NCBI GenBank assembly: GCA_030674185.1
Contig: CM060307.1
Span: 47,129,681 to 47,193,680 of the forward strand
Direction of reading: 5' to 3'
Source: Monoplex corrugatus
Taxonomy: Eukaryota > Mollusca > Gastropoda > Littorinimorpha > Ranellidae
DNA length: 64,000 nucleotides
Shown here in pieces: positions 1,168 through 50,100 of the stretch. Made by a program: the position numbers and the translations under genes. Each line of letters begins with the position of its first letter. Position 1 is the stretch's first letter. The notes below the pieces were generated by a model that worked only from the letters and a program-made list of their open reading frames with translations, was not told where the DNA came from and searched no databases.

Positions 1168-1424
1168 TCACGTTGACATTCGCTGTTGCAGTCTTTTCTT
1201 TTCGCGATAGCGCTTTTCATAAAGACTTTGCTTTTCCCGGTATCTGCGATACAAGAAAGGATTCTGCTTCAAACGTTCTCTGTACAGGCGACTCATCTCT
1301 GTGTTCCTATTGTACCTTGCCCCTTGTATGTGGGAATGAACAGGCATTGGCTGCCACCTAGATGAAAAACTCCCCCAATCCAATGCTGAACTTTCGTTGA
1401 ACTGATCCGGGCCCACAGCACACA
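1168..1424 (-). CDS. Alternative 3'-terminal exon: basic YREK-repeat module
   Basis: This candidate last coding exon of the large minus-strand gene adds 84 residues after a split codon. The acceptor 'TTTTGTTTATTTTCAG' ends at 1425, and the exon starts with two bases that complete a codon, so it is phase 1 and fits the G-ending donors at 47333 and 44376. The C-terminal half is strongly basic, with three tandem tyrosine-arginine repeats of the type YRERLKQNPFLY, YREKQSLYEK and YREKKRLQQR, then a stop. Such repeats occur in basic nuclear proteins of invertebrates, and nucleic-acid binding is an inference. The exon at 62520-62836 encodes a related module (SRWQ/ARWQ followed by RRYREKK). It could alternatively be a relic of a transposon-encoded protein. 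I see no clear poly(A) signal downstream. Confidence 0.72.
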
Positions 1425-1652
1425 CTGAAAATAAACAAAAGAAAAAGTTCCTTACATCTATAGCTTTATTCCCCTCCTATTTCTCCAATGAAAATCTACA
1501 AGTTCTACACTATATCGTCTAATCCACATTTGGTAATATGGAACATTTTTACTGTGTGTTGGTGGAAAGCAAGTGAGAATTCAGTAACATCTTTTCACTG
1601 TGTGCAGGTGTGCATGAAGAAACAAAGAGGAAAAGAGAGAGGGGGAGGGAGG

Positions 1653-1895
1653 GGACACACACACACACACACACACACACACACACACACCACTGAAACA
1701 CGGTTCACTAAGGACACCAAGCCATACCCAGTAAGGGAAAGAGGGAGAGAAAAAGAGAGGGCGGGAGGGAGGGGAGAGAGAGAGAGATTGTGTTTGTTGT
1801 GTGTGTGTGTGTGTGTGTGTGGTGTGTGTGTGTTGTGTGGTGGTGTTGTGTGGTGGTGTGGTGTGCGCGTGCGCGCGCGCGCCGCACGCGCGTGT
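1653..1895. repeat. (AC)n, GA-rich and (GT)n/(GC)n microsatellites
   Basis: A run of about 38 bp of AC, then a GGGA/GA-rich purine tract, then interrupted GT ending in alternating GC. Open frames on both strands here are repeat translations. Confidence 0.9.
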
Positions 1896-2042
1896 GCATG
1901 AAAAAACAGGCATTCGAAGTTAAATAGGAATCTAAATCATGTACTTTATGTATGGTATGGAGATGAACCAATTCACTACTAACCAGTATAGGGTATTTAA
2001 AGGATGTTTACCATTTATGATCTTAATTTCAGTTTGTCAAGA

Positions 2043-2126
2043 AAACATTATATGTACAGCACTAATATGCACAAACACCATAAAACATTATATGTACAGC
2101 ACTAATATGCACTAACACCACAGACG
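2043..2126. repeat. 43-bp tandem duplication
   Basis: Two head-to-tail copies start with 'AAAACATTATATGTACAGCA' and continue through 'CTAATATGCAC'. They are nearly identical, so the duplication is recent. Confidence 0.85.
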
Positions 2127-2240
2127 CCAAATGACAGAAGGATTATACAGAAGACCAAGAACTGACTTTCACACAATGTAGACCATATTAATTTTTAATT
2201 GCAGTACAGCAAAACATGCAGTCAATACTCTGTGTATTAC

Positions 2241-46699: not shown

Positions 46700-46835
46700 T
46701 GTGTTGTGTGGTGTGTGTGTGTGTGTGTGTGTGTGTGTGTGTGTGTGTGTGTGTGTGTGTGTGTGTGTGTTGTGTGTGTGCGCGCGCGCATGTGTGTGTG
46801 TGTGCACACGCACGCCCATGTGTGTGTGCGTGCAT
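46700..46835. repeat. (GT)n microsatellite with CG-rich end
   Basis: GT tract of about 65 bp, then GTGCGCGCGCATGTG alternation. Confidence 0.96.
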
Positions 46836-47332
46836 GCATGGAAGGTTTTATAAAACATACACAGCTGAATGGAACAGTAAGACAGAAAAATATTTTGGAA
46901 GAGACTACAGAAGGAAAGAAATCAAGAGGAGCCAGGCAAAAACATTGAGAGTGGCAGAAAAAGAGTAAATTTCCAGCACACAACTTCATGAAGGTGGGGA
47001 TACCTACCATTTAATTTAACCGTTTAAACTGATAGAGCCCCCAGCATCCCAACGGGTGGGCAGGGGGTTAGAGTATGTGTGCATGTGTGTGTTTATGTGC
47101 AGACTTCATTGAGTGAGCATGCTACATACATGTAAGAATGAGACATTTTATAAAACTACTTCCTAAGTTATTAAATGATCCACAAACTCTATCTTAATTG
47201 GAGCACTTTGCCTGTAAAAATTACAAATAGCAAAATGTTGTATTCCTGTGTTTACAAGAAGCAGAAGGAGGTGGAAAAAAAAAATAATCCAGACTGACAA
47301 TCAGAAAAACAGACACAACAATGACTTTTTAC

Positions 47333-48116
47333 CTGTTTCGCTGCCGCCTCCATCATCGTCAGCAGCCTCCTGTTTAATCCACATAGCACCATCGCCTGTA
47401 CGAGGAGAACATGTGTGAGCTGCTGAAGGTGTTGTGTGCGGCTGTCTTGAGCCTCCTTCACCAACATGTGAGGCTAAAGACAACAGTTCATCCTTACTAA
47501 TTTGTTCTAACTTCACATCACCAATGTTTAGACTTTCTTGTTGTGTTACATTTTGGCTGGTCACTGTTGCTGACGGTCCTGAATGCTGCCTGTTGTTTTG
47601 CTGAAGACTGCTGCTGCCTCTGTTGTGAGTTAGAGGTGGTCCTCCTGCACCACGCACTCGCTGAGCTTGTCTTTCACTAGCACTAGGAGAACCCACACGC
47701 TTCACACCTCTTGATGGAATGGATCCCGAGTTCGTGCTCCCTGGTACCACCCTAGTTTGATCAACAATCATAATATCATCATCTGAGTCTCTACTGTCTC
47801 TGTTACTGGCACCAGACTTTGAAACAGAATCTCTGCTGTCTGGTGTCTTGTTTTGGTCGAGTGGCTGAGCGTGAAAACTATTGCTGACGAATGTGACAGA
47901 GTTCTCATCATTTTTGCTGAGCCTTTCATGCAAAACATAGTCTACCTTTTCTCCTGTGTCAATATTGAGGTAAATGTGTCCCACAAGTTCTACTCCCCTC
48001 TGAAACTCCACATAACCATTGCATAATGACTGCAGAAACTTGGTCAGTGATCCAATGAACTTGGATGATGAATCAGTATCCATTGTATTTATAACTCTTA
48101 TAAGTTGTTCTCAATT
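47333..48116 (-). CDS. Common 5' coding exon of the multi-terminal-exon gene
   Basis: ATG at 48083 sits in a good context (ACAATGG) 33 bases after an acceptor (TTTCTGTTCCAG ending at 48117). The exon runs 250 codons and one base to a strong donor GAAACAG|GTAAAAAG, leaving in phase 1. Residues 1-70 look folded and are the likely interaction domain (TKFLQSLCNGYVEFQRGVEL, then GHIYLNIDTGEKVDYVL). I do not recognise the family. Residues 71-250 are Ser/Gln/Gly-rich and disordered. They contain a SUMO-interaction-like DDDIMIVD (101-108), a basic patch KRVGSPSASERQAQRVR (128-144), and two sumoylation consensus sites, VKLE (190-193) and IKQE (236-239). Such motifs suit a nuclear regulator. All terminal exons called here can join its donor in frame, so it provides the shared N-terminus, much as the BTB exons do in insect lola or mod(mdg4), though no BTB domain is visible. 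Confidence 0.88.
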
Positions 48117-49949
48117 CTGGAACAGAAATCAGAAATCATGTCAATAAGAAATATGACAATCACCAGAGGTTGGACTAACCCATCAGAAAAAAAGAGAAAG
48201 TGTAAGATGGTCTGAGGACATGCTCCTCTGGAAAAATTTAAAAATTAACTGAAAATCATGCAATCTGGTGCATTTTGAGCCATACAAACATGTATAACTT
48301 TGTAAAATTTCTATAATTACAATTCATGAAGTAGGTTCAATTTTCAATAGGTCAAGAAAATTTCTTTACTTGAAATCATACAATCATGAAATGGTTTAGG
48401 GCCTACATTCATAAATGTAAATACACATATGATGTTGACCCATTGCATTAATGTATATTATACCTATTTACATAAAAATTATTATCATGTATTTGCATAA
48501 CATTTGTGTTAAATGCTGTTGACACACGATCACAAAGGGCTGTGGCTTCTTCGAATAAAACATCTCCTCTCTCTCCATATCAATTATCATCGACCGATGT
48601 ACAGAAATAAATGAATGTAATGCGAACTAGTACTCTTCTTGTTGCTGATCATAGTTTTAGTGAGACAGTATAATGTTATCTATTGTTTTTCAATACGTAG
48701 TGACAACTTTATCTGGCTGAGATGGATTTCTTACTATCACTCTTCAACTTAATTTTTGGCAGCTAATATGCTAACATTAGTAACAGTCAAAGCCTGCACA
48801 ATTTCAAATATTCATGCGATCTGAGGGTGTGGGTGGGGGAGAGCAGATAAATATTTATTTCAAACATTGGGCGTTGAACACAGGCCCCTTTTCTCTTTCT
48901 TCCTTTTATTTAAAGTCTTCTTTTGTCTTAAACATTAGGTCACTTTTGTTTTCATTGAAATGCAGTCCTGTTGTACCACTAGATTCATGACAGAGTCGGC
49001 TACTTGAATGAATTCACTGCACTGCTGATGTGTTCATACGCTTTTGTGGGGGTTTTTTTTCGTTGTTGTTGTTGTTTGTTTGTTTTTGTTTTTAATGTCA
49101 TGTAGGCCTATTCTATATTGATCTGGTGAATAGTTATGACGTTTTATAAATTGGTGGAGGTACTTGATTTTTATCTTCATAAAAACGTGTGCGCACACAC
49201 AAGCAAGGGAAAAAAAGTTCTCAGCAAGTAATTTGTTAGTGACGTTGATCGGCATGTGACGATGCAAATGTTTTGACTTTTGTCCATGAATCATTGAATG
49301 TAGTCGTTTTTGTGTATTCAGTATTGTAAGCTCTGTGTGTGTGTGTGTGTGTGTGTGTGTGTGTGGTGTGTGTGTGTGTGTGTGTGCGTGCGTGTGCGTG
49401 CGTGTGTGTGTGTGTGTGTGTGAGTGACTGAGGGAGGAGTGAGTGTGGGGGAGTGTGTACAAACCAGTGTACGACAAAACTGTCTCAGGTACTCGACCGG
49501 AAGAACGCTGTCGTCAAACCGATTCCAACTCTTTATGCACTCAAAGTCAAAGTTTGTCTTGGCCGTTTACTGAGAGTGAGACATCAATATGACAATAGCC
49601 ATTTAAAATTAAATTAAGGGGGAAAAAAGGGGATCAAATTCTAGAAACATAAATTAGCTTAAGAAAAAAGATCACATGCCAGGAACATAAACTTAAAACT
49701 AGCATATTTTACACGCTTGGGGGTCCCACGTGCAATTATACAAACACGCTCCGCAATATCATAATCTACACAACACTACTTTCAGCTTCCGAACGGTGGA
49801 TACCCCAAGATGGCGGCGCAATAGAACGCAGCGCGGCGCGAAATCGCCACTCCACTTATACGCTCTATGAAAATATATCAGCAGCCATGTTTGTGGCCGT
49901 TCACGCATTCGTTCCTTCACACTTAAAAGTTTCCTTGCCATTCCCTCAC
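48117..49949 (-). other. First intron (in 5'UTR)
   Basis: It is bounded by a donor GCAG|GTGAGGGA at 49949 and an acceptor at 48117. It holds a GT microsatellite (49332-49432) and is otherwise AT-rich. A motif AAGATGGCGGC near 49808 resembles a YY1-type site. Confidence 0.6.
49332..49432. repeat. (GT)n microsatellite
   Basis: Interrupted GT/GTGC tract. Confidence 0.96.
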
Positions 49950-50100
49950 CTGCAAATACTTAACAAGAACACTTCGCATTTACAAGTAGTGAATGAGCAG
50001 CAAAACGCTCCAATGCCACTGCTTTCATGTATGCTGTAACAAAGAAGACCGGCGCCCACTTGCAGCTTACGAACGCGACGCCATCTGCATCTAATGACAG
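49950..50100 (-). promoter_or_regulatory. Probable promoter and non-coding first exon
   Basis: The minus strand shows a strong donor TTTGCAG|GTGAGG at 49950. The upstream sequence, together with the stretch just inside the intron, is richer in CG than its surroundings (GCGACGCC, CGGCGCCC, GCGCGGCGCG). This fits a TATA-less animal promoter feeding the exon at 47333-48116. The exact transcription start cannot be read. Confidence 0.5.

What the first reader, a model, noticed from the sequence alone, without database searches (positions are those of the whole stretch)
1168..50100. A lola-like mix-and-match gene whose alternative C-terminal exons are transposase DNA-binding domains
Seen: one common coding exon (47333-48116) and one cassette exon (44376-44567) both end with a phase-1 donor. 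On the same strand, six separate downstream exons (18972-19264, 14316-14605, 13027-13376, 5190-5536, 4216-4484, 1168-1424) each start at a usable acceptor, are open in phase 1 and carry their own stop codon. If phase were random, six matches in a row would have a chance of about 1 in 729. Known: CENP-B/pogo HTH, TTF/hAT zinc fingers and the piggyBac C-terminal ribbon are DNA-binding modules of three unrelated transposon superfamilies. Insect lola and mod(mdg4) use one N-terminus with many C-terminal zinc fingers. Inference: this animal has an independent version of that design, built from captured transposon domains and giving a family of nuclear regulators from one promoter.
Basis: partly seen in the sequence, partly recalled or inferred. 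Interest (0 to 1): 0.92.

Follow-up and report, generated by a model that had tools for sequence, protein, structure and literature searches.

The report
Snail gene with swappable DNA-binding tails
A snail gene joins one fixed front half to one of several interchangeable DNA-binding tails, some taken from jumping genes, much as the fly genes lola and mod(mdg4) do, but with a front domain that matches no known family.

Summary
Related snail proteins support the mix-and-match reading. Fifteen listed isoforms of one Babylonia areolata gene (LOC143299761) share residues 1-314 and carry 15 different tails. Three window tails (18972, 4216, 1168) have close relatives among them. A fourth (5190) matches an unnamed ORF; 13027 has a Pfam zinc finger but no relative found; 14316 is unsupported and may not be an exon. 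The "cassette" exon is in all 15, so it is probably constitutive.

The transposase idea is partly right: two tails are piggyBac C-terminal domains, one is a weak CENP-B-type HTH, one a C17orf113-type zinc finger. Among 92 relatives' tails about 62 look like C2H2 fingers and 23 carry a basic YR motif.

The N-terminal part has no significant Pfam or PDB match; every species-named relative listed is a gastropod. This is best read as an independent, lola-like gene family, partly clustered: a new variant of a known kind. Ten answered paper searches listed no description. No RNA from this animal was available.

The parts
47333..48116 (-). Common coding exon: short 5'UTR piece, ATG at 48083, conserved 74-residue N-terminal domain, acidic DDDIMIVD stretch, VKLE and IKQE sites, phase-1 donor ending in G
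   Evidence: frame, splice sites; 71% identity to Babylonia LOC143299761 isoforms and 77% to Nucella P0002 over 69% of the query; 39 of the first 74 residues invariant in 43 sequences
44376..44567 (-).
   Evidence: matched by 40 of 120 listed relatives; counterpart in all 15 listed Babylonia LOC143299761 isoforms
18972..19264 (-). Alternative terminal exon with CENP-B/Psq-type helix-turn-helix
   Evidence: CENP-B_N E 6e-4, 19.8 bits, below cut-off 21.2; 64% over 83 residues, 58% over the whole tail, to Babylonia isoform X8, P0010
14316..14605 (-). Claimed terminal exon; no domain, no relatives found, background-like codon usage; possibly a chance ORF
   Evidence: no Pfam at E 1; no relative at E 10; 32 of 127 background ORFs score as high; weak acceptor; better phase-1 AG at 14542
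13027..13376 (-). Probable terminal exon with C17orf113-type zinc finger
   Evidence: PF25431 E 7e-13, above cut-off; 5 of 127 background ORFs score as high; best acceptor, phase 1; no relative
5190..5536 (-). Terminal exon with piggyBac C-terminal domain
   Evidence: PF13842 E 1.6e-6, above cut-off; piggyBat transposase residues 501-575, E 4.6e-5; 64% identity to ORF P0060
4216..4484 (-). Terminal exon with a second piggyBac C-terminal domain
   Evidence: PF13842 E 1.9e-6, above cut-off; 69% in the tblastn alignment, 80% in the tail alignment, to Babylonia isoform X7, P0001; same junction residue D
1168..1424 (-). Terminal exon with YR-type basic motif
   Evidence: 72% identity to the tail of Babylonia isoform X15, P0007, same junction residue V; YR profile E 7e-16; the window exon was not in the profile
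62520..62836 (-). YR-type terminal exon upstream of the common exon; probably the last exon of a preceding tandem paralogue
   Evidence: YR profile E 4e-11; 43% identity over 44 residues to the tail of Littorina P0026; best acceptor 62836, phase 1; 4 of 127 background ORFs score as high

Best explanation
This is one member of a gastropod gene family that works like lola. A transcript carries a common coding exon and a second exon, and its final phase-1 donor (GLDPS plus a G) is joined to one of several terminal exons, each with its own stop. Each choice gives a protein with the same N-terminal domain (likely an interaction platform, with SUMO-like motifs) and a different DNA-binding tail. In this locus the supported tails are two piggyBac C-terminal domains, a CENP-B/Psq-like HTH, a YR basic motif and probably a C17orf113-type zinc finger. 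Shown: exon anatomy, related proteins with shared front and different tails, junction phase. Inferred: expression in this species, nuclear DNA-binding regulator function, cis rather than trans splicing.
For: Exon edges, phases and stops. Fifteen listed Babylonia LOC143299761 isoforms share 314 residues and have 15 tails. Tails 1168, 4216 and 18972 have close relatives among those isoforms. Junction residue in VADEG in 90 of 92 proteins of 14 groups, against 25% in the tails at large, and in 8 of 8 further proteins; the two Arion exceptions are explained by a shared A. P0022 is named as a TransDecoder-style ORF of a transcript-style record (GHVL01003487.1) and holds common exon, second exon and a YR-like tail in one ORF.
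Against: No RNA from this animal. Named relatives are mostly database predictions; their read support was not seen, and in Bradybaena the sharing proteins bear separate hypothetical-protein numbers rather than isoform numbers. Tails 13027 and 14316 have no relatives and 14316 does not stand out in the codon test. 5190 matched no full isoform of this gene. The N-terminal fold is unknown (structure prediction off; no significant PDB match). DNA binding is inferred from domain names. SIM and psiKxE motif definitions are recalled.
Confidence: 0.88

Rival explanations
1. mod(mdg4)-type: the common exons and the terminal exons are separate transcription units joined by trans-splicing.
For: mod(mdg4) and lola are trans-spliced in flies (PMC11426971, passages; PMC12692577, start of abstract in a listing). 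A 25 kb gap separates exon 2 from the first tail.
Against: All tails of the finding lie downstream on the same strand, so cis splicing suffices. Nothing here shows separate promoters; none were sought.
Confidence: 0.12
2. A run of tandem paralogous genes, each with its own common exon and few tails; apparent alternatives belong to neighbours.
For: An extra YR exon lies upstream at 62520-62836, and relatives occur as several genes on contigs of one and the same length, for example four Babylonia loci on a 72.3 Mb contig.
Against: tblastn of 120 listed relatives finds only one common exon in 64 kb, and three of the downstream tails have relatives among isoforms of one Babylonia gene.
Confidence: 0.06
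3. The tails are remnants of transposons or chance ORFs in introns, not exons.
For: The window holds LINE reverse transcriptase and mariner remnants. For 14316 the chance-ORF reading fits.
Against: 58-80% identity of three tails to Babylonia isoform tails, agreeing junction residues, and only DNA-binding or zinc-finger domains in the exon peptides scanned.
Confidence: 0.04

Closest known systems
lola (longitudinals lacking), Drosophila
   Same: One N-terminus joined to many alternative C-terminal exons with DNA-binding domains; 17 of 20 isoforms carry C2H2 fingers (PMC11426971, passages). C2H2-like tails also dominate the gastropod proteins compared.
   Different: No BTB domain detected in the gastropod N-terminus; tails here include piggyBac and YR modules. 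TTK-type BTB domains are reported as not found outside arthropods.
mod(mdg4), Drosophila
   Same: Common exons with over 30 alternative 3' exons, mostly FLYWCH; FLYWCH tails occur in a Batillaria and a Pomacea relative.
   Different: mod(mdg4) is BTB-based and trans-spliced; here the tails are co-directional and downstream, and the splicing mode is untested.
TMPO/LAP2alpha and ZNF451 (mammals)
   Same: Host gene with an alternatively spliced domain taken from a mobile element (PMC4495291, abstract).
   Different: One captured domain, related to a DIRS1-like retrotransposon, in each gene, against an array of tails of several kinds.
piggyBac/piggyBat transposase C-terminal domain
   Same: Tails 5190 and 4216 match PF13842, and 5190 matches piggyBat residues 501-575.
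   Different: No catalytic domain in the exon peptides scanned; joined by splicing to a host N-terminus.

Membership tests
lola/mod(mdg4)-like gene design | Common exons plus several alternative terminal exons with own stops | tested here: met
   anatomy; relatives; not tested with RNA of this animal
lola/mod(mdg4)-like gene design | Tails carry different DNA-binding domains | tested here: met
   by domain name or pattern only, binding not tested
lola/mod(mdg4) gene family (homology) | N-terminal BTB domain | tested here: not met
   no Pfam family at E 1 for the common exon; no BTB among families matched by 38 relatives at E 0.1; no significant PDB match. A very distant BTB fold is not excluded, since no structure could be predicted
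mod(mdg4) | Trans-splicing | not testable with these tools
   needs RNA data
piggyBac C-terminal domain | Matches PF13842 or a piggyBac C-terminus | tested here: met
   for 5190; for 4216
piggyBac transposase | DDE catalytic domain in the same coding exon | tested here: not met
   only the zinc finger above cut-off in the two exon peptides scanned
CENP-B/pogo HTH | Pfam CENP-B_N above curated cut-off | tested here: not met
   19.8 bits against 21.2
hAT/TTF zinc finger | Match to a hAT or TTF/BED zinc-finger model | tested here: not met
   13027 matches only PF25431 (C17orf113-type) at E 1
Gastropod shared N-terminal domain family | Conserved residues 1-74 (FLQSLCNGY, GHIYL, SNSFHA) | tested here: met

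The most novel reading that the evidence does not exclude
Caenogastropod and heterobranch snails hold clustered genes that act as capture hubs. A fixed phase-1 donor ending in G lets any compatible exon encoding a DNA-binding module be added, so that lineages keep recruiting modules (C2H2, YR, FLYWCH, homeodomain, HTH, piggyBac domains). The tails taken from transposases steer the shared N-terminus to those transposons, making this a splicing-based counterpart of KRAB zinc-finger defence.
Probability: 0.12. Interest if true: 0.93.

Novelty: new variant of a known kind. Interest (0 to 1): 0.82.

Why it matters
I know of no described gene of this design outside arthropods (recalled; the ten answered paper searches, listed none). 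It would be an independent invention of lola-style regulator diversity with an N-terminal domain of no known family. It would also be a case where transposase domains become alternative tails of one host gene, which makes domain capture by splicing directly testable across annotated snail genomes.

Tried and rejected
Searched for more terminal exons with a YR profile (two significant hits, the 1168 and 62520 ORFs) and with 13 C2H2 tails (none; best E 0.057). Minus-strand ORF 45685-45897 tops the background on codon usage, but its translation shows nothing I recognise; 38305, 40704 and 63460 likewise. YR motif as bZIP: 3 of 38 relatives match bZIP_2 (best E 3e-4) and one bZIP_1, but the YR profile's CREB match is only E 5.6, so I leave it open. 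Poly(A) signals after the stops lie at mixed distances, none seen for 1168 before the window edge; they decide nothing. N-terminal fold: no significant PDB match.

Limits of the counts. One search lists 120 of 273 hits; the other 153 were not seen. A later audit of those 64 found 8 more with a shared front split at the junction; all 8 have V, A, D, E or G there. One unnamed ORF (P0083) shares only 129 residues and was not used. The YR profile was built from 28 tails that I chose by eye; the 23 YR tails counted are all among them, so that count reflects my choice. The two window YR exons were not in the profile. C2H2 tails were counted by a letter pattern; it gave 63, one of which (P0017) is a piggyBac-type tail, hence about 62. 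The 127 background ORFs include transposon ORFs.
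Full report
Observation. All eight exons check out at the stated coordinates on the minus strand. The common exon 47333-48116 opens at ATG 48083 and ends in a phase-1 donor after GAAACAG; 44376-44567 ends in a phase-1 donor after CCTTCAG. 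The six terminal exons follow AG, are open after two leading bases and end in stops.

Chance. I scored every AG in each terminal ORF without regard to phase, using a recalled textbook matrix. A codon-usage test trained on the common exon, the second exon and tails 18972, 5190, 4216 and 1168 finds 5 of 127 background ORFs at or above 13027 and 32 of 127 at or above 14316; the six training exons, each left out in turn, have 0 to 14 at or above them. 13027 looks coding; 14316 does not stand out.

Relatives. A protein search with the common exon plus 5190 gave 273 hits at E 10, of which 120 are listed. They include 15 isoforms of Babylonia areolata LOC143299761, several Babylonia paralogues, and proteins of Nucella, Littorina, Batillaria, Pomacea, Aplysia, Physella, Biomphalaria, Bulinus, Lymnaea, Candidula, Plakobranchus, Bradybaena and Arion. 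The 15 isoforms are identical over 314 residues and then differ: 12 YR-type tails, one piggyBac-type, one CENP-B-like, one homeodomain. Eighteen Aplysia and 16 Physella proteins, each set identical over 316 residues, behave the same way; all 16 Physella tails and 17 of 18 Aplysia tails fit a C2H2 pattern. In Bradybaena four proteins that share 315 residues carry separate hypothetical-protein numbers, so there the annotators did not call them isoforms.

Link to the window. tblastn of the 120 listed proteins onto the window (E 0.01) finds one common exon, the second exon, and tails 1168 (72% identity to P0007), 4216 (69% in the alignment with P0001), 5190 (64% to P0060, an ORF on a 907-base contig, without the common exon), 18972 (64% to P0010) and an extra tail at 62634-62765 (43% to Littorina P0026). 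For 1168 and 4216 the first tail residues (V and D) agree with the Babylonia isoforms. 13027 and 14316 found no relative at E 10 among 209 candidates.

Junction phase. If a phase-1 donor ends in G, the junction codon must start with G and encode V, A, D, E or G. In 92 proteins of 14 groups, 90 first variable residues are of these five, against 25% in the tails at large. The other two (Arion) share an A just before the split; a third Arion protein, P0131, splits before that A, so it is the junction residue. Eight proteins first left out of the groups all fit as well. The proteins are related, so the binomial figure printed is not a true probability.

Transcript evidence. Most named relatives are database predictions; I did not see their read support. 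P0022 carries a TransDecoder-style name on a transcript-style record (GHVL01003487.1) and joins common exon, second exon and a YR-like tail in one ORF. That it is a transcriptome contig is read from the name.

What the tails are. Pfam: 5190 and 4216 match PF13842 above cut-off, and 5190 also matches the piggyBat transposase C-terminus at E 4.6e-5. 18972 matches CENP-B_N below cut-off. 13027 matches PF25431, the C17orf113-type zinc finger, above cut-off; no hAT or TTF model matched. 1168 carries a basic motif (consensus RRYRxRLKQDPxxYxxYxxKQ) with no Pfam family. 14316 has nothing. Across 92 tails of the relatives: about 62 C2H2 by pattern, 23 YR (all of them tails from which I built the profile), 2 piggyBac-type (P0001, P0017), and one each of CENP-B-like (P0010), homeodomain (P0009), FLYWCH (P0122), an HTH that I take to be the Psq match (P0058) and a YR-like Aplysia tail (P0079). 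Transposase-type tails are thus a minority in the proteins compared but prominent at this locus.

N-terminal part. Residues 1-74 are extremely conserved (39 of 74 invariant in 43 sequences) and match no Pfam family at E 1 and no PDB chain significantly (best E 0.44 and 0.84). The linker holds an acidic-hydrophobic stretch (DDDIMIVD) and VKLE and IKQE sites; by recalled motif definitions these look like a SUMO-interacting motif and SUMOylation sites, which would fit a chromatin regulator. This is inference. In a search scoring residues 1-90 alone against proteins of about 501-1594 residues, 39 of 66 candidates reach E 10; 37 are named gastropod proteins and two are unnamed. Every named genus is, as I recall, a caenogastropod or heterobranch. 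Unlisted proteins and other lengths were not surveyed, so restriction to that clade is provisional.

Cluster. The upstream YR exon at 62520-62836, with its best acceptor also phase 1, is most simply the last exon of a preceding paralogue; this was not tested further. Relatives come in groups on contigs of identical length, which I take to be the same contig: Babylonia LOC143299655, 684, 761 and 846 (72.3 Mb) and LOC143293570, 572, 573 and 577 (64.9 Mb); Physella LOC131934882 and 887; Pomacea LOC112563527, 529 and 532.

Comparison with the known. lola has 20 isoforms, 17 with C2H2 tails, and mod(mdg4) at least 30, most with FLYWCH; both have a BTB N-terminus and use trans-splicing (PMC11426971, passages; PMC12692577, start of abstract in a listing). 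The design is the same and even the tail types recur, but no BTB domain is detected and the TTK-type BTB is reported as not found outside arthropods. This therefore works like lola without being a detectable member of its family. An alternatively spliced domain from a mobile element is known in TMPO/LAP2alpha and ZNF451 (PMC4495291, abstract). Ten paper searches were answered, including one for six LOC names with no paper found; none of the listed titles describes this family. Several of these listings were capped, and preprints and most subscription papers are not covered.

Verdict.

Noticed in passing
window 62520-62836 (-): YR-type terminal exon with phase-1 acceptor upstream of the common exon, suggesting a tandem paralogue beyond the window edge.
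   Followed up: partly
relatives P0009 and P0121 (Babylonia LOC143299761 X10 and LOC143293570): Homeodomain tails after the same N-terminal part, in loci on two contigs of different length; a homeodomain as an alternative tail is unusual.
   Followed up: partly
relatives P0137, P0142, P0144 (Aplysia LOC101860137, Biomphalaria LOC106053932, Physella LOC131934887): Longer paralogues whose 90% clusters hold 33, 43 and 49 member sequences, with a segment near residues 370-410 differing between the three species; possibly many isoforms with a swapped internal exon. Cluster members were not read.
   Followed up: no
relatives P0145 and P0156: Divergent relatives of the N-terminal domain in proteins of 1137 and 1010 residues (Littorina and an unnamed source).
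   Followed up: no
window 20948-22001 (+): Broken mariner-type transposase remnant in the large intron; the first ORF matches a Mos1-type HTH model weakly (E 0.002) and HTH_23 (E 7e-7).
   Followed up: partly
window 52149-53762, 54876-55700, 9565-9903 (+): LINE-type reverse transcriptase ORFs on the strand opposite to the gene (RVT_1).
   Followed up: partly
window 38715-38993 (+): Acidic ORF resembling, from recall, the N-terminus of a piggyBac transposase; no Pfam match.
   Followed up: partly
window 13821-14027: 41-base unit repeated in tandem just downstream of the doubtful 14316 exon.
   Followed up: no
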